Positions 452-53,508 of a stretch of 64,000 bases of DNA are shown here, piece after piece (the first letter of the stretch is position 1; each line of letters begins with the position of its first letter). Source of the DNA: Corythucha ciliata (lineage: Eukaryota > Arthropoda > Insecta > Hemiptera > Tingidae); assembly GCA_038030265.1 (NCBI GenBank), contig CM075941.1:14756001-14820000 (forward strand), written 5' to 3'. A model generated the notes under the pieces. It saw nothing but the letters and a program-made list of their open reading frames with translations, ran no database searches and was not told the origin of the DNA. The position numbers and the translations under genes were made by a program.

Positions 452-506
452 CGGCCAGCCAAATCGCCGACAGCAAAAAAGTGACAATCATCGCTTTGCT
501 AAACAT
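452..506 (-). pseudogene. Small secreted peptide family, copy D: exon 1 relic
   Basis: On the minus strand the ATG is at 506-504. The 55-nt exon encodes a signal peptide beginning MFSKAMIVTFLLSAIW and ends ..GCCG, exactly as in the copies at 13.7, 14.4, 36.4 and 45.9 kb. The family donor GTAAGT is here GTATCA, because foreign sequence joins within the first bases of the intron, and no second exon is present nearby. It is more diverged from the other copies than they are from each other. The promoter upstream is retained, so a transcript could start but could not splice normally. I call it a pseudogene. Confidence 0.72.
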
Positions 507-537
507 GTTGGCTATTGGTTTGTTGGGCTTTGAATGA

Positions 538-569
538 CACAACTTAGCGACTTTAGTCCCTTTTTTATA
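538..569 (-). promoter_or_regulatory. Core promoter of copy D (TATA box and initiator region)
   Basis: On the minus strand TATAAAAAAG (569-560) is followed about 30 nt later by TCATTC, a good arthropod initiator, and then by a short leader to the ATG. Spacing matches the four better-preserved copies. Confidence 0.6.
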
Positions 570-720
570 CGATTGCCTTATCAAAGTAGGCTATTTGATG
601 ATGTTGATTGGCATTGGCATTTATGCTGGTTCATAGCCAGTCATTAAAGTCATTAGATGAAAAAAATGCGAGCCATCCGCCTTATCTCAACTCACCTCTA
701 CAATTACCCGAACCTTTATT
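570..720 (-). repeat. Conserved upstream block of the small-peptide family
   Basis: The segment with GGTTCATAGCCAGTCATTAA, the run resembling ATGAATAAAAATATGCGAGCC, and a CGACTCAACTCTACAATT-like stretch is shared with the regions upstream of copies A, B, C and E and with 51858-52100. It is more diverged here. It could carry regulatory sites or simply be co-duplicated sequence. Confidence 0.55.
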
Positions 721-7735: not shown

Positions 7736-8147
7736 TGTAACGTGCGCTACGCAAGGGGGACAAAGGTTGCCGGTCCCGAGGCTGAACAACATTACGGTAT
7801 GGGACAGGGGGCTGAGCAAAGAGACCAAAGCTCACTTGAACGGCACGGCTAGAGTCGCAATAGGCAACCTAGTTCAATTCCCCTCTTACCCAATCCCGAG
7901 TATTCCAGGCGGACGACGTGCCGAAAATAAAGGAGTCGATCGCCAGCTACCAGCTCGTGAAAGTGTATCCTGTTTAATTGTGCCCTGAGAACCATCGTGT
8001 CCCCCCCCCCCCAGTAGTCTCTTAGTTATAATTGTAAGTGGGTTGGGTTTGCTTAGTTAAGTTAATAAAGTTTAGAGTGTTACTCGTGATTTCATGATTT
8101 TGTCCTGTTCCTCCCCAGTAACGGACCCAAAAAACCCCCCCGTTACA
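7736..8147 (+). mobile_element. 5' LTR of an LTR retrotransposon (412 bp)
   Basis: The segment starts TGTAACG and ends CGTTACA, a 7-bp inverted terminal match with TG...CA ends. AATAAA at about 8064 lies in the second half, as expected for the R region. A primer binding site follows 3 bp downstream. The 3' LTR is absent from the window because the element is cut off near 9190. Confidence 0.75.
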
Positions 8148-8150
8148 AAC

Positions 8151-8168
8151 TGGTGTCAGAAGTGGGAT
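8151..8168 (+). promoter_or_regulatory. Retrotransposon primer binding site
   Basis: TGGTGTCAGAAGTGGGAT just inside the LTR matches the PBS type common in Mag-like Ty3 elements, complementary to a host tRNA 3' end. The cognate tRNA cannot be determined here. Confidence 0.7.
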
Positions 8169-8476
8169 GCACCCCACGTGCCGTCCACTGCCGGCCATCT
8201 GACTTGAAAAAGGTAAGAGATTTTTTTATTCTCTAGTACCCCAGCGTTCAAGTTGCTACTTTAGGAATTATTAGCAATAATCCCCCCCTGTCCTAGCTCT
8301 TCCCTCTTCTGCAATTTCGCTTTCCTTTCCCTGTTGTTGAATAGCCTGTCCTTGGCTATGACTAATTAAAACACCCCCCTCCCTGCTCACTCCAAAGCAG
8401 AAATTAGTTCAACAGCCTTCACATCGCTCTCCTTCTCCTCTTCCCGATCGTCATTTTCCCCCTTCCACAAGGTAAA

Positions 8477-9130
8477 ATGCTGGAAGCCCTAGCGTTCCTC
8501 AAGGCCTATAATGACGAGATGGACAGGATAGCAGTGGAAGCGAGAAAACTTATCGGTGTTCATGAAAAAATCCAACAGATAGTGAACACCATAGCCCAAC
8601 ATTTGCAACCAGACCCTGCGAATATCTGCCTTACTCCTAGTCCTTCACCCAGCCCTGAACCCGAAATGCTCCCCTATTCCCTCACTACTAATCCACCTCT
8701 CATGCCCTGCACTGTTCCTCGTCCCTTTCTGCCCGAGCCGAGTCCAGCAAACCACACGGCAGCATCCCCCCAACTTTTTCCATGCCTTACCAACCTCCCC
8801 GTGGATTCAAACCCTGGACACTATTACCCCCCTCCACAACTTACGGTGAGACCGACCCTTGCACCCCCTGCCACAACCCGAACCATTTCCCCACCTCCAC
8901 ATCAAGCGGCCCCCGGGGATGCCTTCCCTACTTCCTGTTCCCCACACAGTCCTGAACCAGAAATGACCCCTAACCCTCTCACCCTAAATCCACCTTCCAA
9001 GCCCACCACTATACCCTGGAACCCCATCTCCTCCTCACTGCCAAAATCCATTACAAACCCCCTAACAACCCCAACCACTCCAGCGTCTCACCCGGGCCAA
9101 TTTAGGGACTGTCTCTCAAACCCTATTTGA
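8477..9130 (+). pseudogene. Gag-like proline-rich protein of the LTR element
   Basis: A 217-codon frame starts with ATG about 310 bp after the PBS. Residues 1-45 (MLEALAFLKAYNDEMDRIAV...) look helical and may form a coiled coil. The rest is rich in Pro, Ser and Thr with repeated PxPEPEM motifs (two copies, about residues 60 and 157). No zinc knuckle, protease or RT follows, because the element breaks off before 9240, where small-peptide-family sequence begins. Position after the LTR and PBS supports Gag; sequence alone would not. Base composition is strongly C-rich compared with the AT-rich surroundings. Confidence 0.55.
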
Positions 9131-9229
9131 CCTTGAACCTGATGACTCTCCCCGAACCTAATGGACGTTTCTTCCACAAGCCGAGTTCTAAAACGAACGC
9201 AGCTACCCCTCTGCATTTATCAATTTCGC

Positions 9230-9690
9230 CCACTGAAATGCTTATAACTTGTATGAACTTTTTTGTCGCACAGGGACGATGGCTGAAGGTGTTGTTGGTG
9301 ATGGCGCGGGCAGATTTTATTTAAAAATCACCAGACGCACTCATCGGGCTAAAACTACCGTTGATAATATTATATCCTTGTCCGCATGTGCCAATTTACC
9401 GGTATACTTTTCCCCCAAATCGGGCATTCATGCAAGTTCCCCATTGATGTGGATTTTGGTTTAAGAGGAAGGAATTCACCTATGATTTTGGGAAACGAAC
9501 CAAGCTGACTGCTGCCCTCTGAAATCTGTTTAGTGATGACATCTATGTTTGGGCATTGACACACACAAGGAACACGTTGTGATTTGAAAATTTTTATTCT
9601 ATATGACAAAATTTCAACTAATTGGCAAACAACGACCCAATTTTTGGGTTTGAGTTTGGGGAAAACTATTGGGGACTCAAATCGAAGTGG
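9230..9690 (+). pseudogene. Small secreted peptide family, copy F: exon 2 relic and flank
   Basis: TATAACTTGTATGAAC...CGCACAG at 9243-9273 is the intron 3' end seen in copies A, B, C and E, including the acceptor. Exon 2 starts at 9274 with GGACGATGGCTGAAGGTG (reading TMAEGV), but then runs into a different sequence instead of the family exon end. That sequence (about 9310-9690) is shared with the region upstream of copy C (36780-37090, opposite strand) and in part with 13862-14060. Exon 1 and the promoter are absent, replaced by the LTR element fragment. Confidence 0.65.
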
Positions 9691-10022
9691 CTGACATCTG
9701 GTGTTATCAGTGAAAAGCTCCAGGAAGCATATAAGACATGATAAATCATTCAGAATGTCGTGATTGTTTGGCTTAAAAGGGCATACTGTGCGCGATAATA
9801 TGGTGAGACGATTTTCTTTTTTTTAATTAATGTAAGTATTACTCACTGAATAAGCGTATGACCGTTCATAATTGTTAAAACCAATTATATCATAAGCCGT
9901 TTCTTAGTCCTTCCAGAATAAGGGCGATTTACCGAGTATTACTCGTTTCCATACTCTATTATATCCACTACACGAAATGATTTATTTCAGATGGGCTCGG
10001 ATATTGTTAATCTGCCTGAGAT
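9691..10022. other. Unassigned spacer
   Basis: No gene or repeat boundary recognised. Confidence 0.3.
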
Positions 10023-10799
10023 TAGGCGGGCATACACGAGCAGATATCTGCGGCAGATATCATGTTTTTGACAGATATCGGTGGTGAAAATTTGCTCGTT
10101 AGTGGGCAAGAAACGACGACAGATCAACCGTGATCAGCCAAACAATATCGGTGGGAGTTCAAATTCGCCAGATGTGGTCTGTGGTCTTCCACTAATCAAC
10201 CGATTTCTTATGAGAGATATCTGGCAGACATAGATCGGCCGATTTCGAATCGGGCGTCGCCCCTTAACGCAACGATTTTAACCACCGAAACTTCAGTGAA
10301 CATGTATTTTCTATTCTTTTTATCATATCGCACCCTCGCTACAATAGTGTCGTAACTCAAAAACATATTTTTTTCAGAAAACACTAAAAAACAGTTTTTG
10401 AAAACTTGGCTGAAAACTGTTTTTTGTGTTTTTTCATATTGTTAAAAAAATATGTTTTTGAGTTACACTATTGTAGCGAGGGTGCGATATGTATGGGTCA
10501 AGCTCTTTGCTCCCTCTACTAATTTTCTAACTTCACATCTGCCACCGATCTCAAATATCTTTCGAACCCGACCGATAAATGAAATCTGTCACTTTTTTTT
10601 CCGCAACAGATCTCAATCTGCCAGATGTGCCCCCACTAACGGGCAGATTTGATCGGGTAACAGATATCGGTCGCAGATAACTTTTGTATACGCTAAGGGG
10701 CGACGACCGATCTCATCGTTTGCTCTAGATCGTTAACGATATCTGTTGAAAATATCGGCCGATCAAATCTGTCAGAATTATCTGTCCGTGTATGCGCCA
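10023..10799. mobile_element. TIR element rich in CAGATATC motifs, carrying a nested foldback
   Basis: The ends are imperfect inverted repeats: GGCGGGCATACACGAGCAGA on the left against GTGGCGCATACACGGACAGA from the right end read in reverse. Inside, CAGATATC/GATATCTG and CGGCCGAT motifs recur on both sides of an inner element. No protein is encoded. A 3-bp TSD is possible but not clear. Confidence 0.6.
10324..10491. mobile_element. 168-bp palindromic MITE nested in the 10.0-10.8 kb element
   Basis: Arms of about 75 bp starting CATATCGCACCCTCGCTAC and ending with the reverse complement face each other almost throughout, differing by small indels. It interrupts the outer element, so it inserted later. 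Confidence 0.8.
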
Positions 10800-11879
10800 C
10801 TATTATCCGCTGCATTGGCGATTTCCAGCGACCATTGATAGAGGGATCTGTTGTTCTCAAAGCAAAACATGTTGAGTGTGACGTTGTTGGAGAAGATGAC
10901 AATTTCCTTGAATATTTCGCCCAATGCCTTCCAACGTTTATCTTGGAATGCCAACCTCATTTTCGAATACAAAAAATTCATTGTGATATAGTGACAAGTG
11001 CAATTAAAAAATGCACGTGCACCTAGGCACGTCAGGAAGTTTTTATTTCAACTTTATTATACATAGGTACATTACAGTTGTGCGAGCCAGTTTTAGGAAC
11101 ATGGAGCGCGTAAGACATGAAAGTGCATGATGCCAACTTCATGGATTTCACCCTTTTGAAAGAAAAATTTCCAGGGTGTTAGCTCATTTGTAAAGAGCAA
11201 TTTATCGGATATCGCTCCTTAAAAAAAAATAACGGATTTTACCATTGCAAATTTTGCGGACTATTTGGCTCTTACAGAACCAAATTTCACAATTTTTACC
11301 CACTCAAAAGGCCAATTACGAAAAATTGACTCCCTAAAAAGCCAATTTTGCGGGACTGGCCCAAGAAATAATCCAATCTAACTGGTTTGGGCTGTGACCG
11401 TCAAAAATGAAATTCTTGGATTTGGGCTGTTTCATAGTTAAAATCTCGAGGATTTGACACTTACTGAATATCCAAGGTTTAAGGTATCAACCAAGGTTTT
11501 GGCTAATTGGAGGACTAATAATTTCGCTCCCTAGAAAAAAAAAGCAATCTTTCGGATTGGTTTTGCCAAAACCCAGATTTAACGAATCATGCTCGTCAGG
11601 AATCACTATTTTGCGCGGTTGGCTCTCTAAAAGGAGGCCGTCTTATGGATTTCACACGTTTAAATTCAAATTTGTAGGGGTGTTAACTAATTTTAAAGAG
11701 CTATTACGCCGATCCGGCTATCTTAAAATACTTGACCGTTTTTAAAAGACTGACCGCGGGACTTGACCGCTGTCCCATGGATATACATAAAACAAATCTC
11801 AAATTTTGTTTCAAGTGTTACTTCCAAACAGAGTTATTGTTTTTCCGTTCTAGGTTTGCCTCAAAGGTCTGCCGGGACC
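10800..11879. other. Unassigned region with weak degenerate repeats
   Basis: From about 11130 to 11760, phrases such as AATTTTGCGGAC, GGATTTCACC and TTGGCTC...AAA recur loosely, like the decayed arrays at 15.6-16.7 kb. No coding feature is recognised. Confidence 0.35.
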
Positions 11880-12137
11880 AGGGGGTGATTCTGTAACTTG
11901 CAAAATTTACGTGTCGTAACTGTGAAGGGGGGGGGGAGAGGATGTATCACGTAGCCTTGGTTTTTCCACTCATTTGTTAAAATTTGTTATTTTTTCTTCG
12001 AGACCACACATTCTCGCGTGAAAATTCGGCAGTTTAATTCACTAGGTATCGTAAAAACCATGACAACGAGGTACCTCCCCTCGCCCTTCTTCCATTTTAC
12101 GACACGTAAATTTTGCAAGTTACAGAATCACCCCCCT
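11880..12137. mobile_element. 258-bp foldback MITE
   Basis: AGGGGGTGATTCTGTAACTT and the following 20 bases are repeated in reverse complement at the other end (12098-12137), giving TIRs of about 40 bp. A diverged relative seems to lie at about 55345-55590 (GGGGGCTGATTCTATAG and a shared internal GAGGTACC segment). Confidence 0.75.
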
Positions 12138-12249
12138 GGAGCCTCCTGGGAAGAGAGGAAATGCTGGAAGACATTTGTCAAATGCACCTGAACTCATCGA
12201 ATTCCTTGTTCAAGGAGCTGGAGAATTATTTTTTCTTTCTCATGCACTG

Positions 12250-12378
12250 GGGCCTTATTCCGAGCAGTCGGGAAAAAATGCCGCAAGCGGGATCCAAGGA
12301 CGCTACATCAGAAATAATACTATCCCGCCATAGCAACCACCTCACGTGAGTTTTTCCCGACAACTCTAATTACGGCCC
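12250..12378. mobile_element. 129-bp MITE, member of a pair with 42453-42581
   Basis: The ends GGGCCTTATTCCGAGCAGTC and the reverse-complemented right end match imperfectly. The interior contains GGGAAAAAATGCCGCAAGCG. Length and sequence agree with the copy at 42453-42581. The flanks are CTG and CAG here, against CAG/CAG at the other copy. Confidence 0.72.
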
Positions 12379-12644
12379 CAGGTGTACCTAGAAGGAAATG
12401 AACATATGTGAGGAGAACGTCATATTAACCGAAGCGATCCGGTAGGGATGGCGCTAAAAACCAGTCAATGCTTATCTGGCCTCAACCACAGAATGATTCA
12501 AAAGTCGCCGACTTCAAATTTCAGCGAGCAACGCATATAATTTGTATACCTACGCCCGTGGAAGCAGGAACTGTCCCCTTTTCTAGCCAAGGCTTCAGGA
12601 AACACGTTTCTGGTTATTTCAAAGACACATTGATTTACTTCTAA
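12379..12644. other. Unassigned spacer
   Basis: No recognised feature. Confidence 0.3.
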
Positions 12645-12869
12645 TTAAGCAAGTTGGAAATGTCCGGAGGAAACCCGCGTGAATTTCGACACTTCTTTCC
12701 CGATCCTCAATAATATTTTCCCTGGGTTTTCCATAATTTTTTCAGGAGGTAAACAATGGAAAGAAACATTGGGGGTCCGCTTGTTATTTGGACATTGAGA
12801 GACACAACACACGAAGTGGGTTTTTGGGGACTCCCTCCAAGCGCAAATAATTGTGGTCCACTTCTTCAC
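12645..12869 (-). pseudogene. THAP-type zinc-finger domain fragment
   Basis: The minus-strand frame contains CCVSQCPNNKRTPNVSFHCL, then PPEK and, near the end, TRVSSGHFQL. This is the C2CH layout of THAP DNA-binding domains: an early CxxxC, SFHxLP, and a terminal VCSxHF. The third Cys is Ser in this copy and the usual central Trp is not seen, so zinc binding would be lost. THAP domains occur in P-type transposases and in host regulators derived from them. Only this one exon-sized piece is present. Whether it was part of a transposon or a host gene cannot be decided. Confidence 0.5.
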
Positions 12870-13149
12870 CCGCCAGCAGTCGTTTAATCTATAAATTAAT
12901 TACATAAATTGAGAACTGAGCTAAATTACCATGCCAAACTATTGCCTTATAAACTGTTTAAATGCCTTTCAGACGATATTTTGAAACGATCGTACCGCTC
13001 TTTATAATTCGATTGAGTTACCAATAAAACGGGCGGTTGGGACAAGGAAGAAGCTCCATAAAATAACATTCCTTCCGTAACTATTAAATTGTTCACGGTA
13101 AGCAATAATTAAATAGGTGGATATACTGAATAAATCTGTCGCCGGTATT
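12870..13149 (+). repeat. Upstream block of small-peptide copy A, left part
   Basis: From about 13020 the sequence (ACGGGCGGTTGGGACAAGGA, then ATTAAATTGTTCACGGTAAG) matches the upstream regions of copies B, C and E. It is interrupted by the tRNA-bearing foldback and resumes after 13447. Confidence 0.55.
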
Positions 13150-13447
13150 TTAATTAATAAATTAATTAGACTGATATTATCCGGACGACGACGGAAGGGC
13201 ATAGCCCAGCACGATTCGAGTTTCGAGAAACAATGGACCTGGTTGGGGTTCGGCTTAGCTTATCCCTCGGAGTACGACTCCCATAGGCGCCTCCGTGGCG
13301 CAAATGACAGCGTGCTGGACTGGTAATCCAGAGGTTGCGGGTTCAAATCCCGCCGGGGAGCCATTTTTTCTCGAAACTCGAATCGTGTTGGGCTATGCCC
13401 TTCCATCGTCGTCCGGATAATATCAGTCTAATTAATTTATTAATTAA
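13150..13447. mobile_element. Foldback element with 81-bp inverted arms enclosing a tRNA-like gene
   Basis: The arms 13150-13230 and 13367-13447 are reverse complements with two mismatches in 81 bp. The 136-bp centre holds a tRNA-like sequence with an A box, a B box and a T-run. The element splits the upstream block of small-peptide copy A: AATAATTAAATA occurs at about 13106-13117 and again right after the right arm, consistent with a duplication of the target. About 30 bp between the left occurrence and the left arm are not explained. Confidence 0.75.
13289..13363 (+). tRNA. tRNA-Thr(GGU)-like gene or pseudogene
   Basis: The anticodon stem CTGGA/TCCAG encloses loop CTGGTAA, giving anticodon GGU (Thr). 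The T-arm GCGGG-TTCAAAT-CCCGC is perfect and the D-stem is GCGC/GCGT. The A box TGGCGCAAATG and B box GGTTCAAATCC fit Pol III consensus, and TTTTTT follows at once. The acceptor stem GCCTCCG/CGGGGAG has two mismatches at its end, and CCA is present in the DNA, which is unusual for an animal tRNA. It may be a degenerate gene or a derivative maintained by the foldback. Confidence 0.6.
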
Positions 13448-13601
13448 TAATTAAATACTAGATAAACAACTTAGCTTGTAATTGTAGATTTGAGTCGATA
13501 AAACGGAAGGCTCGCATATTTTTATTCATTTAATGATTTGTTATGAACTAGCTTTGATGCTAACAGCATCATCAAAGTAATTTAGTTTGATCAGGCAATA
13601 G
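13448..13601 (+). repeat. Conserved proximal upstream block of copy A
   Basis: Contains ACTAGATAAACAACTTAG, CGATAAAACGGA, ATTTTTATTCATTTAATGAT and a GATGCTAACAGCATCATC dyad. All are found upstream of copies B, C and E in the same order. Confidence 0.6.
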
Positions 13602-13637
13602 TATAAAAAGGGACTGAAGTCGCTAGTTCTGTCACTC
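13602..13637 (+). promoter_or_regulatory. Core promoter of copy A
   Basis: TATAAAAAG at 13602-13610 and TCACTC at 13632-13637 have the TATA-initiator spacing of an arthropod Pol II promoter, predicting a start near 13634 and a 32-nt leader. Confidence 0.7.
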
Positions 13638-13665
13638 AAAGGACAACAAACCAAGAGCCAACATT

Positions 13666-13909
13666 ATGTTTACCAAGGCAATGATTGTCACTCTTTTGGT
13701 GTCGGCGATGTGGCTGGCCGGTAAGTACGCCGAACTTTCTTCCCGCCGTTCTTCACCGTTTTTTTTTTTTTTGTTTTTTTTTCATATCTTTTTTTTATTA
13801 GTATAACTTGTATGAACGTTTTTGTCGCACAGGGACGATGGCTAAAGATCTTCTCCCTACTCTGAACGGAAGAAATTCACCGATTATTTTGGGAAACCAA
13901 CCAAGGTGA
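13666..13909 (+). CDS. Small secreted peptide family, copy A (two exons, chimeric end)
   Basis: Exon 1 is 13666-13720 and exon 2 is 13833-13909, joined by a GT-AG intron of 112 nt with donor GTAAGT and a T-rich body. The spliced frame encodes 43 residues. MFTKAMIVT...WLAG is a typical signal peptide with probable cleavage after TMA, leaving about 20 residues starting KDLLPTL. After PTLNG the sequence switches into a segment that is intergenic at other copies (upstream of C and F), so the C-terminus differs from copies B and E. This looks like an unequal-recombination product that still has an open frame. No function is known to me. The start is supported by the conserved leader and promoter. 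Confidence 0.62.
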
Positions 13910-14321
13910 CTGCTGATCTCTGAAATCTGTTTATTGATGATGTCTATGTTTGGCCATTGACACACACAAGGGAACACGTTGTGATTTGAAAATTTTGATT
14001 CTATATGACAAAATTTCAACTAATCGGCAAACAACGACCCAATTTTTGGGATGGAGTTTGGGGGAAACTGTACAACGGGCGGTTGGGACCAGGAAGAAGC
14101 TCCATGAAAAAGCATTTCTTCCGTGATAATTAAATTGTTCAGGGTCAGGGTAAGCGATAATTAAACACTAGATAAACAACTTAGGTTATAATTGTAGAGT
14201 TGAGTCGATAAAACGGATGGCCCTCATATTTTTATTCATTTAATGATTTTAATGACTGGCTATGAACCAGTTTGAATGCTAATCAACATCATCAAAGTAA
14301 TTTAGTTTGACCAGGCAATAG
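13910..14321 (+). repeat. Upstream block between copies A and B
   Basis: This is the same upstream sequence as before copy A, without the tRNA foldback. It therefore shows the empty site of that insertion (GATAATTAAACACTAGATAA at about 14155-14174). It is near-identical, in reverse, to 36527-36990. Confidence 0.7.
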
Positions 14322-14357
14322 TATAAAAAGGGACTGAAGTCGCTAGTTCTGTCACTC
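14322..14357 (+). promoter_or_regulatory. Core promoter of copy B
   Basis: TATAAAAAG at 14322 and TCACTC at 14352 repeat the copy A arrangement exactly. Confidence 0.7.
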
Positions 14358-14385
14358 AAAGCACAACAGACCAAGAGCCAACATT

Positions 14386-14633
14386 ATGTTTACCAAGGCA
14401 ATGATTGTCACTTTTTTGGTGTCGGCGATGTGGCTGGCCGGTAAGTACGCGGAACTTTCTTCCCGCCGTTCTTCACCGTTTTTTTTTTTTTTTTTTTTTT
14501 TTTTTTTCTATTTTTTTATTAGTATAACTTGTATGAACTTTTTTGTCGAACAGGGACGATGGCTCAAGGTGATGTCCCTACCCCTACTCTTGGGGAAGAC
14601 GCGGGCATTTCAGCCGGTCTTGGTGGTAAATGA
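14386..14633 (+). CDS. Small secreted peptide family, copy B (two exons)
   Basis: Exon 1 is 14386-14440, the intron 14441-14553 (GTAAGT...CAG, with a long T-run) and exon 2 14554-14633. The product is 44 residues: a signal peptide with hydrophobic core IVTFLVSAMWLAG, likely cleavage after TMA, and a mature part of about 22 residues (starting QGDVPTPTLG, ending GLGGK). It is shorter than copy E because the exon-2 segment between GEDAG and the stop is replaced by a short run. No cysteines, so not a disulfide-rich peptide. A polyadenylation signal follows. Copy C encodes the same peptide. Confidence 0.68.
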
Positions 14634-14763
14634 TAAAATGATAGTAGGATAGCTTCACCTACGCCAAGACTTATGATGGCCAGAGCGTGCACTCACAGTT
14701 CTGTACACATTTTTTTTTACGTTTACTTCAACAATGATAATATGGCAGTTGTAGCAAAGTCAT

Positions 14764-14769
14764 AATAAA
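14764..14769 (+). terminator. Polyadenylation signal of copy B
   Basis: AATAAA about 130 nt after the stop, in a block conserved downstream of copies C and E, fits a short 3' UTR ending near 14785-14795. Confidence 0.65.
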
Positions 14770-14795
14770 GAGCACTATAATCACACACCACGCAA

Positions 14796-15108
14796 CATTG
14801 TTTTTCAAGTTGGACCGTGAACCTAAAAGAATAAGCAAGTAGCCACTCAGTGGCGCTTCAAAGTGGTTCCGTGTGGTGAGGCCCTAAAACAGGAATTTTG
14901 TTTTTAACGTTTCATGAAGATGACTCTGCGGACTGAGTAATCAGTCGAAAAACAAATTCCATGCCACATAGTAATATTACAGATAAATACCCGCGAAATT
15001 CCAACCTTCTCAGCCAAACATCCGCGAAATTGCAAGCTTCGAGTATTCATTTCTTTTGGAAAAAAGCTAGTTTTGAGGGGCTGAATCCAATCAAAATTGC
15101 ACGTGTTG
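14796..15108 (+). repeat. Dispersed downstream block of the small-peptide family
   Basis: Segments such as TTTTTCAAGTTGGACCGTGA, GGACTGAGTAATCAGTCG and GCGAAATTCCAACCTTCTCA recur in reverse at 30815-31150 and partly at 37690-37745 and 39170-39230. Confidence 0.65.
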
Positions 15109-15270
15109 TTTTTTTTTTTTTTTTTCGGGGGCGCCGGGCTTTGAACCCGGCTGGAGCTTAAGCCTCCCTTGGGCTCCTACGCCATATCCAGATCTAACTG
15201 TGCACTTAACACCACGCGTACTACGCGGGCGTTTCGGTCGGTGCGCGGTTTCTTGAACGCACATCGCCGG
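15109..15270 (-). mobile_element. SINE, second copy, minus strand
   Basis: Reading the minus strand, CGCACCGACCGAAACGCCCG, CACAGTTAGATCTGG and a CCGGGTTCAAAGCCCGG hairpin are followed by a poly(A) tail. The order matches the copy at 2840-3002. TSDs are not clear because the tail merges with a T-run of the family's downstream block. Confidence 0.72.
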
Positions 15271-15590
15271 GAACGCCCACACGAAGCCGAGAGTGCCGTG
15301 TCACAGCTCGCCGCAGCCTTATAGTGTAACGGACAATGGCTGGATTCGAACCGAGACTCAAATAATAAATAGGTGCTAAATGGCAACTTTCGTGGCTTAA
15401 ATTATGAGAAAGACCCTTTATATTTATCGCTAAAAGTAAGAATAAATCGCGGATTCACAGCTAAATTCGACAAAAACGCTAATGCGCAGCTAAAATTTGA
15501 AAAATGCTAATTTTCAGTTTTCAAAGGTGGCTTCGTGGCTAAAGCGAAGAAGCCATAATTTAGCACAACCTAATGAATTATATTAACCGT
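15271..15590. repeat. Short decayed array of GCTAAAATTxAGAAAAACGCTAAT type
   Basis: From about 15400 the phrases ATCGCGGATTCACAGCTAAA, AAAACGCTAATGCGCAGC and GTGGCTAAAGCGAAGAAG are loose copies of the unit of about 30 bp that forms long arrays at 56-57.8 and 60.3-61.3 kb. Confidence 0.5.
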
Positions 15591-16887
15591 TTCTTTGGAG
15601 AATATGGACCCTCATAGAGATTTCCACAGGGCCCCGATATTAGGTCCTCCTCAGGATCCAGGGTCTCTAGCTCTAACCCGATCCGCGGAGGATTCGAACC
15701 ACAAACCAGAGAGACCCTCATAGTTTGCCCCTCTGAAATCCCATTTTAGTGTGTTGGCTCATCATTGCAAACAAACGTTGCCTTAGGGGTTGGCTCCTCA
15801 GCCATTAAATTACGTGGGTTTGGCTGATTTTAACAGGTTTTGCTCTCTTAAGTTCGGAATATGCCGTCAGCTGTGGGTTTGGCTTCTTAAACCCATTAGT
15901 TTCGGGAGTTATCCCACAAATAAACAGCATTTGAGGCCATTGCTTTTTTAATAGCCAAAATTTGGCGAGCTCGGCTACAAAAAAAAAAAAAAAACAAACA
16001 AAAAACAAAAACAAAAAAACAAAAAACAAAAAAAAAAACAAACTTGTGCTGAGGTCAACTCGGTAAAAAATTAAGAAGTTCACCCAGTTGGCTCTTGAAT
16101 AAACAAATTTCCTGGAGTTGACTATTTGAAACACCAAATTTCGTAGATTTTTTACCACGTAGCTAATCCAATTCCTCTTGTTTAACTCACTCACTCACGA
16201 ATAGGCAAATGAATTTGTGTGCCATGGGATTGGCGTGATAAAAAAAACCAATATTGTGCCTTCTTTCTATTCAAATTCGTGGGAGTTTTTCCTTCCAAAA
16301 CCAACTTTCACGCGTTACTTCCTCCACAATTCTGTAAATATGAAGAAAAACGCTAAGGGTTCTCTCCTGAAATTCCACTGAAATTGGGACGCGAAACTTG
16401 CAATTTGGAGGCTAATTATTCTTCGAATCTCGGCTCTATGGTCACCTCTTGAAACTTTAATTCTGTTCAGCTCCACAATAGAATATTAAGACGCGAATCT
16501 GCGCATTTTCACGGGATTTTAGATCAAAATGTTTAAATTTCGTTACCATTAAGCTTCGACGTTGCAATTCGAAGGCTATATTCAGTCGTGGAATTTGCTT
16601 ATTGACATAGCTACTCAGTCCGCGAATCACAAATCGGTAAAATTTCAGCTTTAGAATTTCGCTGTGTTTCTTCAAAATAGCCATTTCGCAGCTGTTTATT
16701 CCCATAAACAAGCAACTTTGTCTCAATTTAACCCAAAATTTGTGGTCACCGGTAAAGCTCGCTTTAGTACTTCTGAAGTTGGTCTCAGACTTAAGGTCAA
16801 TTCAGACTATTCGGACGTGACGTGAGAACAGGCTGTCCCATGTATGATACAGGTGAGGGGTGAAGACGCGTTTTCTGGGGTTTCGTC
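15591..16887. other. Non-coding region with degenerate TTGGCT-type repeats
   Basis: Between 15740 and 16740 short phrases like GTTGGCTC, GGGTTTGGCT and TTTCGTGGGAGTT recur with little conservation. A run of A with interspersed C lies at about 15980-16043. The frame covering it translates to a Phe-rich string and is not a gene. Confidence 0.4.
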
Positions 16888-23914: not shown

Positions 23915-26900
23915 TGAACAGAAATTCTCGAAATTTAAATAATCCCCCACCAAAAAACTGTATACTTCAGTGGAACATCCGAGGGTATCATCAACACTCG
24001 GACGAGCTCCGCTCGATTATTTCGAATCACACCCCTTTCCTCATAGCACTTCAAGAAACCCACTTTACGAACTCCTTTTTCACTACCCCTAACGGCTACA
24101 ATCTACTCCAAAAATCATGTACTCCACGAGAGGGTGGACGCCGCCATGGCGGAGTTGCCCTACTCATTTCCAACACCTTACAGTATACAGAAATTTTACT
24201 TAACACGCCACTACAAGCGATAGCGGCTCGACTCACCTCTCCCTTGGCCATTACAGTGTGTTCCCTTTACCTTCCGGACACCACTTGGAGCCCGGAAGAT
24301 GTTCGGAACCTCCTACGATCACTCCCCTCCCCCATACTCTTGCTCACGGACGCCAACTGTCACAACATAACATGGGGATCGCGACGTACATCTACCGCCG
24401 GCGCTATCATGGACTCCATTCTATCGGATTCCAACCTAACCATCCTAAACGATGGTCATCCAACCCACTTCACCTCATCCTCAGGAACATTCGACGCGAT
24501 TGACCTCAGCGTTGCAAGCCCTAGCTTATCCACTGCCTTCGAATGGATAGTGCTCCCAGAACTTCATCATTCTGATCACTACCCAATTCTACTCAGACAC
24601 CATTCACCTCATGCAGATATCACTTTCCCCGAACGTTGGATGCTCAGCAAAGCTGACTGGGAAAAATATTGCAATATCCTAGAACTACCAGAACTTACTG
24701 ATGACCCGGATTTAGACGTTGAAAATACGACATTAGCCATATCTTCTGCAGCAATCCAATCTATTCCTCGCAAAACGAAACGTTATCCACGTCCCCCAGT
24801 CCCCTGGTGGAATGATGAGATCTACGCTGCCATTCATCTAAAAAAAACTGCCTTCAATAAATTCCAAAAATACCCCTCAGAAGAAAACCTCATAAATTTC
24901 AAACGTCTCAAGGCCAACGAACGCAGACTTAAACAACAAGCCAAACGAAAATCATGGGCGACATACGTGCCTGGTATCAATACCCAAACCTCCTCGAGCG
25001 AAGTTTGGCGCCGAATCCGAACCCTGAAAGGCGTCCCACCTACCCTACCACCAACTACACTCACCAATGACTCCGGTCAAACTTTTCAAACCCCTTCCGA
25101 AATATCTAATCACCTAGCCCAACATTTTGAATCCAACACAGCTGCATATAATCCAACACATGACCAAATTCCTAATTCACAATGAAATCTCTTCACAGCT
25201 ACAGACAGTGATTACAACACCCCTTTTTCGATGCCCGAACTTGAACAATCCATCTCACTCCTTCCTGCAGGAAAATCCCCAGGACCTGACGATATACCCA
25301 ACGAATTTTTAACTCACCTTACCCAACCTTCTAAAAAAAAGCTCCTTTCCCTATACAACTCTTTATGGCACAAACACTATTATCCCAGGGCATGGAAAAA
25401 AGCAATCATCGTACCGATACTAAAACCCGGAAAGAACCCCAAAAATGCCAACAGCTACCGCCCTATTTCTCTAACCTGCTCAGTGGGAAAATTATTTGAA
25501 AAAATGATAAATTACCGCCTAATGAAACTACTTACAAATCGCAACCTTCTAAATCCCTTGCAAACAGCCTTTCGTTCCGGACACTCTACCATAGACCAGC
25601 TCGTTTCACTAGAACAATTCATCCAATGTGGGTTTCTCAATAGAGAACACGTCACTGCGGTTTTCTTCGATCTGACAAGAGCATTTGACCGAGTTCTCCG
25701 TAAACCAATTCTAAATCAACTGTCCCAATGGGATATTTCAGGAAATCTACCATTAATCTTACAAAGCTTCCTTACGAATAGAAATTTCACCGTCAGAATA
25801 GGTAGCACCTTTTCTAACCTGTATGAACAAAGGAATGGCATCCCCCAGGGCTCAGTGTTGAGTACCACACTCTTCCTGATTGCCATGAACCGAATCAACA
25901 GCAACCTCCCAACTACTATCCACACGTCTATTTATGCCGACGACCTTGTTGTCTATACCAGTCATCCTAACAAATCAACAGAACACAACCACCTCCGGTA
26001 TGCAATTAATCAGCTTGCGGAAAACGCTAATGCAATTGGCTTGACCTTCTCTCCTACCAAGACCTCAGCTATCCTCTTTTGTCGACTTCGCTACCACCAC
26101 AACCCCCCCGAGTAATTTCGGGAATTACTCTTCAAAATTCACCCATAACGTACAAAGAAACACAAAAACTCCTTGGCATTACCTTCGATAAACAGCTTCG
26201 CTGGAAACAAAACATATTTGAAATTAACAAAAAATGTAACAAGACCCTAAACTTAATGAAAACCCTTGCTAATCACAACTGGGGATCAGACGCCTCACTG
26301 CTTATAAAAATTCTTAACTCCCTCATCCGTTCCCGTATGGAATATGGGCTCCAGGCTTACGGCTCAGCCCGTAAATCCTGGATGATGACTCTTGACCACA
26401 CGTATCAAGCCGGTTTGCGAATAGCACTGGGAGCTTACCGATCAACACCTTGTGCCGATTTATACTTTCTATCTCAAAATCTACCTCTACATTACCACCG
26501 TCAACAAATCTTGCTAAACTATACTCTTTCAATCAAAACACAACCTAACCACTTCCTCCACTCTGAACTTTTCAATCCTCCACACTTACAATTATTCACC
26601 CAACTCCCCTCGCGCACACGTCCCCTTTCTGTTCGTCTGCGCGAAACCTTAGCCAACTATTCTACAAATTTGAACCCCGTGATCCCGAAATTAAATTCTG
26701 AAATCTATCCCTGGAATTACCCTGAAATACTTATAGACTATACCATTAAAAATTTGTACAAGAAAAATGACACTCCCCCTGCAGTCATGCAATCCCACCT
26801 TAATAGAATATTAAATACCAAGTATACTAACCATCACCTTGTCTACACTGACGGATCAAAAATGACCTCCGGAGTAGGCTGTGCCCTCTACTCCCCTCTT

Positions 26901-27653
26901 GAAACATCTTTCATCTGTCCTCTCCCAACCCATTTTTCCATCTTCACTGCCGAGTTATACGGCATGCTTTTTGCGTTAGATCACTTCCTTCATTATAATC
27001 ACACTTCTTTCCTTCTTCTAACCGATTCGTACAGCTCTCTAGAGGCAATTCGTAACAAATTTACCACAGACCCGGCCATAACAAATATTCACCACAAAAT
27101 TGTCCAACTTGCTTCACAATCAAAATCTGTAACTTTCATGTGGGTCCCAAGCCACATAGGCATTGCGGGGAACACCCAGGTGGACTCCCTTGCCAAATTT
27201 GCAGCGTCACACCAACCTTCTGACCTTTCCATCCCGTCAAGGCAAGATGATGAAAAGCATCGGCTGAAACAAATAATTTGGAATAAATGGAACACAGAAT
27301 GGAATAGAAATCACACAACATTAGGATCTCTATACGACAACCCACAAAAATACGCCCCCCCTATTGGCTTCACACGAAAGGAGAATATTACTATCCTCCG
27401 ACTTGAAACAGGTCACACTAGACTCACCAAAAATCACTACATAACACGAAGCGCACAACCATACTGTTCACATTGCGAAGAACCTCTTACCATAACCCAT
27501 ATCCTACTGGACTGCCCACTATTCACCGCAGAAAGAGCCACGTGTAACTTCCCACCGAATCCAACTATTACGACCCTTCGAACTACATCGAACGAACTAC
27601 TGAAAAACGTCCTACAGTTCCTAAAATTAACTAATATATACAGTAAACTATAA
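23914..27653 (+). pseudogene. LINE ORF2: APE endonuclease, reverse transcriptase, RNase H
   Basis: ORF2 starts ATG 23914 in the TAATG overlap. The endonuclease shows LQWNIRG, ALQETHF, LTDANCHNITWGS and HHSDHYPI. An in-frame TGA at 25183-25185 interrupts the linker; the same frame continues through RT (SPGPDDIPNEFL, SYRPISLTCSVGKLFEKM, FFDLTRAFDRV, GIPQGSVLS, YADDLVVY). A one-base loss in a C-run at 26103-26109 then shifts frame. RNase H follows (YTDGSKM, FTAELYGMLFAL, LTDSYSSLEA, WVPSHIGIAGNTQVDSLAK), then a CxxC...H...C zinc motif (YCSHCEE...HILLDC) and the stop at 27653. An RNase H after RT favours the I-type clade over classical Jockey. Two lesions inactivate it. Confidence 0.88.
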
Positions 27654-30814: not shown

Positions 30815-31150
30815 CCCAAGGTGCCGGTAAACACAACCTCTTGCAAGTGGGATTACTTTCTTATTCTTTTAGGTTCACGGTCCAACTTGAAAAACAATGT
30901 TGCGTGGTGTGTGATTATAGTGTTCTTTGTAAAAAAAACAACAACACGTGCAATTTTGATTGGATTCAAAACTAGCTTTTTTCCAAAAGAAACTAATACT
31001 CGAAGCTTGCAATTTCGCGGATGTTTGGCTGAGAAGGTTGGAATTTCGCGGGTATTTATCTGTAATGTTACTATGTGGCATGGAATTTGTTTTTCGACTG
31101 ATTACTCAGTCCGCAGAGTCATTTTCATGAAACGTTAAAAACAAAATTCC
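30815..31150 (-). repeat. Dispersed 3' flank of the small-peptide family, no coding part
   Basis: The reverse complement matches 14790-15100 (TTTTTCAAGTTGGACCGTGA, GCGAAATTCCAACC, GGACTGAGTAATCAG). It also carries CTCTTGCAAGTGGGATTACT, shared with 42240 and 45370. The exon and poly(A) region are missing: the match jumps at a T/A-run near 30935. Confidence 0.65.
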
Positions 31151-36055: not shown

Positions 36056-36061
36056 TTTATT
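36056..36061 (-). terminator. Polyadenylation signal of copy C
   Basis: AATAAA on the minus strand in the same downstream context as copies B and E. Confidence 0.62.
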
Positions 36062-36192: not shown

Positions 36193-36319
36193 TCATTTAC
36201 CACCAAGACCGGCTGAAATGCCCGCGTCTTCCCCAAGAGTAGGGGTAGGGACATCACCTTGAGCCATCGTCCCTGTTCGACAAAAAAGTTCATACAAGTT
36301 ATACTAATAAAAAAAATAG

Positions 36320-36370
<51 letters not shown>

Positions 36371-36462
36371 GGTGAAGAACGGCGGGAAGAAAGTTCCGCG
36401 TACTTACCGGCCAGCCACATCGCCGACACCAAAAAAGTGACAATCATTGCCTTGGTAAACAT
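36193..36462 (-). CDS. Small secreted peptide family, copy C (two exons)
   Basis: Exon 1 is 36462-36408, the intron 36407-36273 (GTAAGT...CAG) and exon 2 36272-36193. The spliced product is the same 44-residue peptide as copy B, including the GLGGK end. The intron contains about 49 consecutive T on the coding strand, which makes it 22 nt longer than in copy B. Promoter, leader and 3' signal are intact. B and C share at least 1 kb in inverted orientation, so they are a recent duplication. Confidence 0.68.
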
Positions 36463-42224: not shown

Positions 42225-42440
42225 AAGGTGCAGGTTAACATAACCTCTTGCAAGTGGGACTACTTGCTTATTCTTTTAGGTTCACGGTCCAACTTGAGCA
42301 ACAATCTTGGGTGGTGTGTGACTAAGTGCTGTTTATTATGACTTTGCTACAACTATTATATCATTGTCGAAGTAAACGTAAAAAAAAATGTGTGCACGCA
42401 CTGGCCTTCATAAGCCTTGGCGTGGGTAAAGCCAAGACCT
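42225..42440 (-). repeat. 3' UTR/flank relic of the small-peptide family (copy G)
   Basis: Matches 45345-45570 and 36000-36170 (GTTCACGGTCCAACTTGA, TTTATTATGACTTTGCTACA, GTAAACGTAAAAAAAAATGT). It stops at the segment corresponding to the start of the 3' UTR; exon 2 is not present. Confidence 0.62.
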
Positions 42441-45453: not shown

Positions 45454-45459
45454 TTTATT
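45454..45459 (-). terminator. Polyadenylation signal of copy E
   Basis: AATAAA on the minus strand, about 130 nt after the stop, in the conserved block. Confidence 0.62.
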
Positions 45460-45589: not shown

Positions 45590-45897
45590 TCATTTACGTA
45601 ATCTTGAAGTAGCACCGGTGAGTGCATTGGCCAAGCCACTCGTAGTATCAGTCAGTGCCCCGCCCGCGGAACTACCAACACCGCTGACTAATTTGCCCGC
45701 GTCTTCCCCAAGAGTAGGGATAACACCTTTAGCCATCGTCCCTGTGCGACAAAAACGTTCAAACAAGTTATACTAATAAAAAAAAGAGATGAAAAAAAAA
45801 AAAACGGTGAAGAACGGCGGGAAGAAAATACGGCGTACTTACCGGCCAGCCACATCGCCGACACCAAAAAAGTGACAATCATTGCCTTGGTAAACAT
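45590..45897 (-). CDS. Small secreted peptide family, copy E (longest form)
   Basis: Exon 1 is 45897-45843, the intron 45842-45742 (101 nt, GTAAGT...CAG) and exon 2 45741-45590. The product has 68 residues. The signal peptide is as in the other copies, probably cut after TMA. The mature part of about 46 residues begins KGVIPTLGEDAG and is rich in Gly, Ala, Ser and Thr, with no Cys and a basic end (SRLRK). The pattern of spaced hydrophobic residues (KLVSGVG, GALTD, GLANALTG) could form an amphipathic helix. Copies B and C keep the first ten mature residues and the stop context but lack most of this segment. No homologue is recognised. A TATA promoter and 3' signal are present. Confidence 0.68.
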
Positions 45898-46793: not shown

Positions 46794-47249
46794 TATTAGC
46801 ATCAAAGCTAGTTCATAACCAGTCATTAAAATCATTAAATGAATAAAAATATGCGAGCCATCCGTTTTATCGACTCAAGTCTACGATTATAAGCTAAGCT
46901 GGTTCTCTAGTGTTTAATTATTGCTTACCCTGAACAATTTAATAGTTACGGAAGAAATATTATTTTATGGAACTTCTTCCTTGTCCCAACCACCCGTTTT
47001 ATAGTTTCCCCCCAAAAATCGATCAATTTCCTCTTCGTAAACACATATCCCCTTCAAAAATTGGATCTTTGTTTGCCGATTAGTTGATATTTTGTCATAC
47101 AATTCCTACGAAAAAAATAAATTACTGAAATTGCGAAATTAGAGGGGAAATGAAAAAATAATTAAACAGGCAAGAAAAAATTATTCAAAATCGAATTTCC
47201 TATTCCAAAAAAGTAACTTCACTTATAGCATGGAACTGGAAGAAGCAGT
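46794..47249 (-). repeat. Upstream block of copy E
   Basis: Continues the family's upstream sequence beyond the 788-bp insertion, ending at the 2.5-kb hAT element. 46809-47257 is duplicated almost exactly at 51858-52306. Confidence 0.75.
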
Positions 47250-51857: not shown

Positions 51858-53508
51858 TAGTTCATAACCAGTCATTAAAATCATTAAATGAATAAAAATA
51901 TGCGAGCCATCCGTTTTATCGACTCAAGTCTACGATTATAAGCTAAGCTGGTTCTCTAGTGTTTAATTATTGCTTACCCTGAACAATTTAATAGTTACGG
52001 AAGAAATATTATTTTATGGAACTTCTTCCTTGTCCCAACCACCCGTTTTATAGTTTCCCCCAAAAAATCGATCAATTTCCTCTTCGTAAACACATATCCC
52101 CTTCAAAAATTGGATCTTTGTTTGCCGATTAGTTGATATTTTGTCATACAATTCCTACGAAAAAAATAAATTACTGAAATTGCGAAATTAGAGGGGAAAT
52201 GAAAAAATAATTAAACAGGCAAGAAAAAATTATTCAAAATCGAATTTCCTATTCCAAAAAAGTAACTTCACTTATAGCATGGAACTGGAAGAAGCAGTTC
52301 CGCCCTTTCTGGAGTCAAAGTAGATCTTTACATTTTTGGGCACTCCACGAAAGACGGCTGTTTGAGGTACAAACGACATTTTCCCCGCTCTGAAATGACG
52401 TGGAGATTACCGACATTGTCGTGCCGTGAGTCATTTCAAGAGACCCGAGGCACAGAGTCGTCAATCGTACAATACACTCTTCACCTAAATGCTTCATCCC
52501 ACTGCCATCCCGAACTTCAACTGCATGAGCAGACCTTCTTATATATAGATCTTGGGTGAAATGTGCCTAAATTTGACGATCTGATCAGGAATTTCTGAAC
52601 GTTCGCTGAGGTATCTCAGTCAAAAATACGTCGATTTTAAAATTTAAAAAGCCATTTTGTAGCATGTTTTTCCAATAATTTAACCGTACCTTTACCCCGA
52701 AGACTTCGGAAGATTAGAATCGTCTTTGAAGGAAACGGTAAAAATCAAGTTTGCACTTTTTCGCTTTTTCAAGAAATAAAAGAAAATACTTAAACATTAG
52801 TTCGGTTAGTTGCAACAGGGTTTCTAAATCCCAAAATGTCTGCTCTTCTCAGAAATGTAATCGGTATTGTTCTGTTACGAATGGCTAGGACGCTAGAAAT
52901 GATTATTGACGAAAAGAACGCGTTTGGCCGAAAAATGACAAAAATACCTGTAACTCGGAAATGAAGCGTTTGCGACCCTATGTTCATGTGGTGATTTTGG
53001 TTCGTCCTCGTTAGTACTACGACTGGTTAAAGTCCTGATCATTCCTCCTGAAACACCCTGTATTATTTACTTATACTCCTACTAAACTGTGAAGTGAAAA
53101 CGAGAAAAATAATACTTCGTGAGCACTGCAAGGTTTATTGTGTCCACCGGCATTCTGTAATATGTTCAACATTTTCAAACTCATGCGTATTTTACATGGT
53201 ACTTTATTTCACAAGATGAAAAACATACCGATTGCTAGGGACGCTCAAGGAGTAATCCAGGGTCAAAGTAAATAGACTTAAGCTCGGTGCACACGATGCA
53301 TTTTTCGAAGCATGTTTACTTGCATGGTGAAAAAAAACATATGATCCCCATCAGTGACCGGATGTTTTTTAGAACAGGCAGGCCATCATGCTTCAAAAAA
53401 ATGCATCGTGTGCAGGGTCAGGCATTACCCGAAGAATTATCTATCGGCCCGAAGATCGGTCAGCAGGGTACCCGAAAGTCGGCTAGCCAGTCACCCAATT
53501 CTTTGTTT
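51858..53508. repeat. Segmental duplication, second copy (1651 bp)
   Basis: Joins the equivalents of 46809-47257 and 49781-50971 without the 2.5-kb hAT-type insertion. A few substitutions and an insertion of about 17 bp near 53435 (GAATTATCTATCGGCC) distinguish it. It includes part of the small-peptide upstream block but no exons. Confidence 0.92.
53288..53414. mobile_element. 127-bp TIR element, second copy
   Basis: Same element as 50770-50896, duplicated with its host segment. Confidence 0.7.

What the first reader, a model, noticed from the sequence alone, without database searches (positions are those of the whole stretch)
13602..14795. A hidden family of two-exon small secreted peptide genes
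Spliced by eye, copies A and B here, C at 36.2 kb and E at 45.7 kb all give a signal peptide plus a short Cys-free Gly/Ala/Ser/Thr-rich mature part (about 20-46 residues). They share TATA, Inr at +30, the 55-nt exon 1, a GTAAGT donor, a T-rich intron and AATAAA. Single-ORF scans miss them because the coding parts are 55 and 77-152 nt. I recognise no known family.
Basis: partly seen in the sequence, partly recalled or inferred. Interest (0 to 1): 0.9.

Follow-up and report, generated by a model that had tools for sequence, protein, structure and literature searches.

The report
Fast-evolving secreted helical peptide genes
An arthropod genome carries a cluster of tiny two-exon genes for secreted peptides whose export signal stays nearly fixed while the active part changes unusually fast, the pattern seen in gall-midge saliva proteins, which suggests an undescribed set of molecules shaped by conflict with another organism or an equally fast-changing target.

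Summary
The observation largely holds. Copies B, C and E encode a signal peptide in a 55-nt exon 1, a GTAAGT donor, a 101-135 nt intron and a short Cys-free Gly/Ala/Ser/Thr-rich mature part. Copy A is a relic: its exon 2 is truncated and fused to an intergenic repeat, without AATAAA. I count 18 exon-1 copies, 13 in a C5 cluster around the window; I judge 9 of 18 intact. Exon 1, the core promoter and splice sites largely persist in distant copies. Exon 2 is hypervariable. In an 8.9-kb duplicate otherwise 99.5% identical, it has 13/74 differences plus in-frame 6- and 72-nt indels (p=5e-16). In the closest trio, exon-2 dN/dS is about 15 (p=6e-5), though not above 1 in distant pairs. Several mature parts show an 11-residue amphipathic period; a single-sequence fold of E is helical. 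No relative was found in Pfam, PDB or a 5.8-billion-protein database. Evolution resembles Hessian-fly SSSGP genes. Expression, gland and species are undetermined.

The parts
14322..14358 (+). copy B core promoter: TATAAAAA at 14322, TGTCACTC initiator-like with its A at 14354
   Evidence: spacing measured; block alignable in diverged copies
14386..14440 (+). copy B exon 1 coding part (signal peptide, 55 nt)
   Evidence: constrained in distant pairs
14441..14553 (+). copy B intron, GTAAGT...CAG, T-rich
14554..14633 (+). copy B exon 2 coding part (mature QGDVPTPTLGEDAGISAGLGGK plus stop); hypervariable segment
14764..14769 (+). copy B AATAAA
13602..13638 (+). copy A core promoter (TATA 13602, initiator-like A 13634)
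13666..13720 (+). copy A exon 1
13833..13909 (+). copy A truncated exon 2, open by read-through into an intergenic repeat; relic, no AATAAA
36490..36526 (-). copy C core promoter (TATA 36526, initiator-like A 36494)
36408..36462 (-). copy C exon 1
36193..36272 (-). copy C exon 2 (protein identical to B)
36056..36061 (-). copy C AATAAA
45925..45961 (-). copy E core promoter (TATA 45961, initiator-like A 45929)
45843..45897 (-). copy E exon 1
45590..45741 (-). copy E exon 2; 46-residue mature part with 11-residue amphipathic period
45454..45459 (-). copy E AATAAA
449..706 (-). relic: upstream flank plus exon 1 only (GTATCA in place of the donor), same junction as a C3 copy
9243..9295 (+). relic: acceptor and first part of exon 2
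42257..42432 (-). relic: 3' end of a unit
30850..30928 (-). relic: downstream flank of a unit
46795..47015 (-). upstream flank of a unit; next to copy E it is separated from the gene by an insertion
51860..52064 (-). relic: upstream flank of a unit
8064..16883 (+). block duplicated at C5:14724048-14732958, 99.5% identical outside B exon 2

Best explanation
This is a birth-and-death family of TATA-driven, two-exon genes for small secreted linear peptides in an arthropod. Exon 1 encodes a nearly fixed signal peptide. Exon 2 encodes a 22-46 residue Cys-free mature peptide, in several members with an imperfect 11-residue (hendecad) period that would form an amphipathic helix. New variants arise by duplication in the cluster, conversion-like replacement of exon 2 and rapid amino-acid change under diversifying selection, while signal exon and, within the cluster, promoter and UTRs stay alike. 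Shown by computation: gene structure, copy set, exon-2 hypervariability, excess of amino-acid change in the closest trio, helical periodicity in some members. Inferred: transcription and secretion, folding of the helix on a membrane or other hydrophobic surface, and use as gland-secreted effectors (saliva, venom or another secretion) in conflict with another organism or against another fast-changing target.
For: Structure and open frames. Family also on C1, C2 and distal C5 (relics on C3, C4). Exon 2 is the most divergent stretch of an 8.9-kb duplicate (43/8739 elsewhere vs 13/74, plus 6- and 72-nt indels; next worst 74-column stretch 5). Close trio E/L013b/L016 (E-L013b, E-L016, L013b-L016): nonsynonymous 15/109, 19.5/106, 15/106 vs synonymous 1/41, 0.5/38, 1/38 and 3'UTR 10/190, 10/189, 8/189; omega 14.7, LRT p=6e-5; IQ-TREE MGK rejects omega=1, p=4e-4 (null kappa from a grid). 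Exon 1 in distant pairs: E-L022 S 4/11, N 2/43. Moment at the helix angle of 100 degrees p 0.0006-0.0135 in 7 of 10 mature peptides; AlphaFold2 single-sequence model of the E mature part: helices 7-16 and 20-45, mean pLDDT 87.1, pTM 0.44.
Against: No expression data. dN/dS is near or below 1 in distant pairs (dN/dS values E-L024 0.52/0.48, E-L023p 0.63/0.62, E-L022 0.84/1.10, L023p-L024 0.21/0.18), and L013b-B shows N equal to S (0.154 vs 0.150). Substitutions in the trio sit mostly at first codon positions ([9,4,3], [15,3,2], [10,3,3]), so an odd mutational process is not excluded. L013b, one of the three, is broken in exon 1. The B/L016 exon-2 difference groups B with C against L016 at 13 of 13 sites and is better explained by replacement of one exon 2 than by 13 separate mutations; some of the 13 lie beside the 72-nt gap and depend on alignment. 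Distant copies differ in detail: TATA-to-initiator distance is 22 in L023p, L023m and L024, and no AATAAA lies within 1 kb in L023p and L024; over the whole 190-nt 3'UTR, E against L022, L023p or L024 is at the shuffled level (53-55% vs 52-53%). Three of 10 peptides (B/C, L016, L022) show no helical moment; lag-11 hydrophobic pairing is significant only in E, L013b and L016, and in L024 lag 15 is stronger than lag 11. Net charges of -3 to +2 do not favour a classical lytic peptide.
Confidence: 0.6

Rival explanations
1. Immune antimicrobial peptides: linear Cys-free helical peptides of the cecropin kind, diversified against microbes. (Odds of the functional rivals overlap with the best explanation, which leaves the target open.)
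For: Small, Cys-free, helical in the E model, signal plus short mature part, clustered with broken copies, diverging exon 2. Cecropin and Gly-rich diptericin genes are reported in Collembola (abstract of PMC10051947).
Against: Mature charges are -3 to +2 in the open models, not strongly cationic; no match to a Pfam AMP family at E up to 1 except Entericidin at 0.061, below its cut-off.
Confidence: 0.2
2. Ice-, surface- or desiccation-active peptides: 11-residue repeats with spaced Thr, working like fish type I antifreeze protein or LEA peptides (both recalled).
For: 11-residue identities in E (10/35, p=6e-4) and L023p (13/34, p=0.001); Thr-Thr pairs 11 apart in E, L023p and L024, four Thr in register in L023p.
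Against: No Thr pair 11 apart in L013a, L016, L022 and B/C (4 of 7 peptides); positive selection on the mature part is not expected for ice binding; Gly content is high for a lone helix.
Confidence: 0.1
3. Reproductive or pheromonal peptides diversifying by sexual conflict or species recognition.
For: The same evolutionary signature is expected.
Against: Nothing in the sequence points to it; no tissue data.
Confidence: 0.15
4. Non-coding repeat units or dead copies; open frames are incidental.
For: About half of the 18 exon-1 copies look broken; the region is dense in transposable elements.
Against: Splice sites and frame kept in diverged copies, exon-2 gaps in multiples of 3 in the pairs, frame-dependent excess of amino-acid change, few places genome-wide.
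Confidence: 0.05

Closest known systems
Hessian fly small secreted salivary gland protein genes, SSSGP-1 (PMC2955719; abstract, section list and part 1 of 3 of Results read)
   Same: Cluster of tandem and inverted copies; one intron near the signal/mature boundary; signal-coding part of 57 nt; promoter, 5' and 3'UTR and signal alike while the mature part is super-diversified; dN/dS above 1 in moderately diverged pairs (above 18 in one); a recent inverted duplicate encoding an identical protein (here B and C).
   Different: Sequence similarity to SSSGPs was not tested directly. Mature parts here are 22-46 residues, Gly/Ala/Ser/Thr-rich, several with an 11-residue period; mature-coding lengths in the paper's Table 1 are mostly 189-636 nt. 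Salivary expression untested here.
Cecropins and other linear helical antimicrobial peptides (recalled; Collembola survey abstract)
   Same: Cys-free secreted helical peptides of about 40 residues.
   Different: Not strongly cationic, no cecropin match.
Fish type I antifreeze protein and other 11-residue-repeat peptides (recalled)
   Same: 11-residue period, small residues, Thr at the period in some members.
   Different: Gly-rich rather than Ala-rich; Thr register in 3 of 7 peptides only.
Springtail polyproline-II antifreeze proteins (search listing and abstract starts only)
   Same: Small Gly-rich arthropod proteins.
   Different: No Gly-every-third register and no Cys in the 7 peptides examined; the features of the known family are recalled.

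Membership tests
SSSGP-like super-diversified secreted peptide genes | conserved signal exon and UTRs with diversified mature part | tested here: met
   within the cluster; for the distant copies the signal exon and promoter block only, the whole 3'UTR being at shuffled level
SSSGP-like super-diversified secreted peptide genes | clustered tandem and inverted copies | tested here: met
   13 of 18 exon-1 copies at C5:14.674-14.803 Mb, both strands
SSSGP-like super-diversified secreted peptide genes | positive selection on mature part (dN/dS above 1) | tested here: met
   trio omega 14.7, p=6e-5; not seen in distant pairs or L013b-B
SSSGP-like super-diversified secreted peptide genes | expression in salivary gland | not testable with these tools
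   no transcript data
cecropin | sequence match to the family profile | tested here: not met
   Searches (5 full-length peptides; 4 mature parts): no cecropin match at E up to 1, within HMMER's filters
cecropin | strongly cationic mature peptide (recalled) | tested here: not met
   charges -3 to +2 in the open models
type I antifreeze-like | Thr repeated every 11 residues on an Ala-rich helix (recalled) | tested here: inconclusive
   Thr pairs 11 apart in E, L023p, L024 but not in 4 other peptides; Gly-rich
springtail PPII antifreeze | Gly every third residue (recalled) | tested here: not met
   Gly falls in all three registers in 7 of 7 peptides, best 6 of 9 in one register
transposable element or dispersed repeat | many copies genome-wide | tested here: not met
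   11 places; 18 and 20 rows; of 55 rows, 20 scattered rows are 37-56 nt matches at query positions 861-924, which is the T-rich intron of B, and one is a 63-nt match elsewhere. The tool warns that counts of repeats are lower bounds

The most novel reading that the evidence does not exclude
A previously undescribed class of secreted peptides built on a Gly-rich hendecad helix, in which one gene cluster keeps promoter, signal and UTRs nearly constant and swaps or rewrites only the mature exon, so that a single arthropod generates a peptide library under an arms race; the same genetic design as gall-midge effectors reached with a different, minimal peptide fold.
Probability: 0.35. Interest if true: 0.8.

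Novelty: new member of a known kind. Interest (0 to 1): 0.62.

Why it matters
Genes like these are missed by single-ORF scans and here by homology searches. If expressed, they show that the SSSGP mode of evolution (fixed signal and flanks, rewritten mature exon) is not peculiar to gall midges, if this arthropod is not one, and can act on very short Cys-free helical peptides. The 8.9-kb duplicate, in which the mature exon is by far the most divergent stretch, is a compact natural case for asking whether gene conversion or selection rewrites such exons.

Tried and rejected
Rejected: non-coding repeat (see rivals); copy A as a working gene; Pfam SseC (E=0.039) and Entericidin (E=0.061), both below their cut-offs, and four weak PDB matches (E 0.34-0.86), taken as chance. 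A wrong-frame reading: in frame +1 the trio looks 'purifying' (S 0.17-0.28, N 0.070-0.077), but read directly from the sequences printed that frame has a stop inside exon 2 of E, L013b and L016, and its 'synonymous' rate far exceeds the 3'UTR rate, so I keep the predicted frame. For the LINE frame of the window, 17 of the 19 listed hits that bear an organism name are arthropods and 2 bear bacterial names, identity at most 37% (120 of 138 hits listed), so I say arthropod. A nuclear COX1 copy reminds me by recall of Hemiptera; this was not tested. Fold search of the helical model was not run, as a 46-residue helix would match very many chains. One literature search for such Gly-rich hypervariable arthropod peptides (5 of 6 terms required) gave no paper; no broader claim is made.

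Full report
Setting. The window is C5:14756001-14820000 of a 400.9-Mb assembly of 57 contigs, of which C1-C7 are chromosome-sized (30.9-71.5 Mb). Of 8 larger open frames scanned with Pfam, 6 carry reverse transcriptase, endonuclease, RNase H or integrase domains and 2 have no match; the long frames around the window look like transposable elements by eye. For a LINE frame (window 26031-27650), 17 of 19 listed hits that bear an organism name are arthropods and 2 bear bacterial names, identity at most 37%. I take the organism as an arthropod without a close annotated relative; it was not identified.

The observation. TATA starts 32 nt before an initiator-like A in TGTCACTC, and AATAAA follows in all three. 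B and C encode the same protein. A has the 5' half intact, but its exon 2 passes after about 31 nt into a repeat also found upstream of B and C, its mature part is not of the family composition and it lacks AATAAA within 1 kb. I treat A as a relic; its duplicate in L015 has also lost the acceptor AG.

The family. A blastn scan of the 180 kb held around the window and of five other loci, a fuzzy exon-1 scan and three genome searches with the window stretch, the L024 unit and the L022 unit give 18 copies with exon 1. Thirteen are in the cluster: A, B, C, E and a relic at 449-706 in the window, and L010, L012, L013a, L013b, L014a, L014b, L015, L016. Five are elsewhere: L021 (C3), L022 (C1), L023p and L023m (C2), L024 (C5:47.3 Mb). 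Exon-2 relics lie at window 9243 and its duplicate in L015, in L011 and at C4:26.40 Mb. I judge nine of the 18 intact: B, C, E, L013a, L014b, L016, L022, L023p, L024. A and L010 also read open, but with a truncated or shifted exon 2; L014a has lost its ATG, and L013b, L023m, L012 and L015 are broken in a frame or splice site; L021 and the 449-706 copy show exon 1 only. L023p needs an acceptor three bases downstream; L016 and L014b have GTAATT and GTATAT donors. The donor is GTAAGT in 12 of 18. The exon-1/donor pattern has 11 places at up to 3 mismatches and 0 for its reversed control. The last probe, L022, gave 20 rows, all at places already known; the tool's counts are lower bounds.

Conservation by segment. 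Between E and L013a, L022, L023p or L024 exon 1 is 85-96% identical and exon 2 45-62%, where shuffled exon 2 gives 40-51%, so exon 2 keeps only a weak likeness. The core-promoter block and a short stretch after the stop align in the distant copies, but TATA-to-initiator distance is 32 in 10 of 16 copies measured, 34 in 2, 31 in 1 and 22 in 3, and L023p and L024 have no AATAAA within 1 kb. Over 190 nt of 3'UTR E is 81% identical to L013a and 94% to B, but at shuffled level against L022, L023p and L024. Exon 1 in distant pairs shows more synonymous than nonsynonymous change per site (E-L022: 4/11 vs 2/43; E-L023p: 4/11 vs 2/43; E-L024: 3/12 vs 5/42).

The mature exon is the hot spot. Window 8064-16883 has a duplicate at C5:14724048-14732958. 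Outside B exon 2 they differ at 43 of 8739 aligned bases; inside they differ at 13 of 74, with a 6-nt and a 72-nt indel, both multiples of 3 (Fisher p=5e-16; the next worst 74-column stretch has 5, in the T-rich intron of A). B and its duplicate L016 have 0/189 differences in the 3'UTR, 3/113 in the intron and 2/55 in exon 1. In a three-way comparison all 13 exon-2 sites read B=C against L016, whereas outside exon 2 B groups with L016 at 11 sites, with C at 6, and C with L016 at 4. So one exon 2 was probably replaced or rewritten as a unit; the direction is not settled, and some of the 13 sites sit beside the gap and depend on the alignment.

Selection. In the closest set with alignable exon 2 (E-L013b, E-L016, L013b-L016), nonsynonymous differences are 15/109, 19.5/106 and 15/106, synonymous 1/41, 0.5/38 and 1/38, and 3'UTR differences 10/190, 10/189 and 8/189. 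One-sided Fisher tests on rounded counts give N against S p=0.035, 0.001 and 0.041, and N against 3'UTR p=0.011, 0.0003 and 0.003. A codon model gives omega 14.7 and rejects omega=1 (p=6e-5); IQ-TREE MGK rejects omega=1 with p=4e-4 for the trio, 2e-4 with B, 3e-4 with L013a and 0.008 for six sequences (that output does not print omega). The intron and upstream flank of the trio differ more than the 3'UTR does (intron 20/101, 11/101, 15/108; 5' block 21/95, 6/95, 19/95), so the 3'UTR is the lowest of the neutral yardsticks. Against the reading: distant pairs show dN about equal to dS, L013b-B shows no excess, and the trio's changes lie mostly at first codon positions, which can be read as swaps among Ala, Thr, Ser and Gly codons but is unusual.

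The peptide. The eight distinct open-model mature parts have no Cys, at most one aromatic residue, G+A+S+T of 0.50-0.73 and charge -3 to +2. E can be written KGV IPTLGEDAGKL VSGVGSSAGGA LTDTTSGLANA LTGATSRLRK: lag-11 pairs of large hydrophobics 6 (p=5e-5) and lag-11 identities 10/35 (p=6e-4). Lag-11 hydrophobic pairing is also significant in L013b and L016 but not in the other 7 of 10; lag-11 identities reach p<0.05 in E, L013b, L023p and L024, and in L024 lag 15 is stronger. At the a-priori helix angle of 100 degrees the moment has p 0.0006-0.0135 in 7 of 10 peptides (E, L013b, L013a, L014b, L023p, L024, L011 exon 2) and is not significant in B/C, L016 and L022. With the best angle over 60-180 degrees only E, L013b, L024 and L023p stay below 0.05; at strand-like angles of 160-180 degrees L022, L013a and L014b have minimum p of 0.02-0.05. 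The peptides are related, so these tests are not independent, and the 11-residue period was noticed after looking. AlphaFold2 on the E mature part alone gives helices 7-16 and 20-45, mean pLDDT 87.1 (72.9-87.1 over five models), pTM 0.44; no control sequence was folded.

Known relatives. Pfam, NCBIfam and PDB have no credible match. The protein database has none either: no candidate for E, and for an alignment of 8 there were 647 word-sharing candidates, none at E up to 1. That database does hold arthropod proteins, though tiny spliced genes are often unannotated. The closest known design is the Hessian fly SSSGP-1 cluster (PMC2955719; abstract and part 1 of Results read): same exon layout, clustering, an identical inverted pair and dN/dS above 1. 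It is a parallel, not shown to be homologous.

Mechanism proposed. TATA-driven transcription in a secretory tissue (inferred); signal cleavage after T/S/A/V-x-A (read from sequence, no predictor run); a linear peptide that can fold as an amphipathic helix on a membrane or other surface (inferred from periodicity and one model); diversification by duplication, exon replacement and selection (shown in part). The target is unknown; an effector role is my leading guess at about 0.5, immune about 0.2, reproductive about 0.15, ice or stress about 0.1. The 0.6 given to the best explanation is for the whole description with the target left open, so it overlaps with these.

Noticed in passing
window 13150-13447: A tRNA (Rfam, 13291-13358; anticodon loop reads CTGGTAA) sits between 87-nt inverted repeats 97% complementary; a similar tRNA-like stretch lies downstream of the L010 copy.
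   Followed up: no
window 46010-46800: About 780 bp inserted in the upstream flank of copy E, with inverted ends (AGGGTTGCCAGA / TCTGGCAACCCT) and ATGCTAATA on both borders: a DNA-transposon-like insertion (read).
   Followed up: no
window 47350-49400: Degenerate dispersed repeat of about 30-nt period, 16 to 18 copies in the two largest families listed.
   Followed up: no
window 449-706 and L021 3411-3661: Upstream flank plus exon 1 joined to the same non-family sequence at two places on different chromosomes, as if moved together.
   Followed up: partly
L014 1400-2030: The intron of copy L014a holds an insert with inverted ends (CTATAGGTGCCGCAGAT...ATCTGCGGCACCTATAG) and the copy has GTG in place of its ATG.
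   Followed up: no
L066 1501-2841 (C2:28402495-28403835): Nearly full-length nuclear copy of mitochondrial COX1, open under the invertebrate mitochondrial code, plus several shorter matches.
   Followed up: partly
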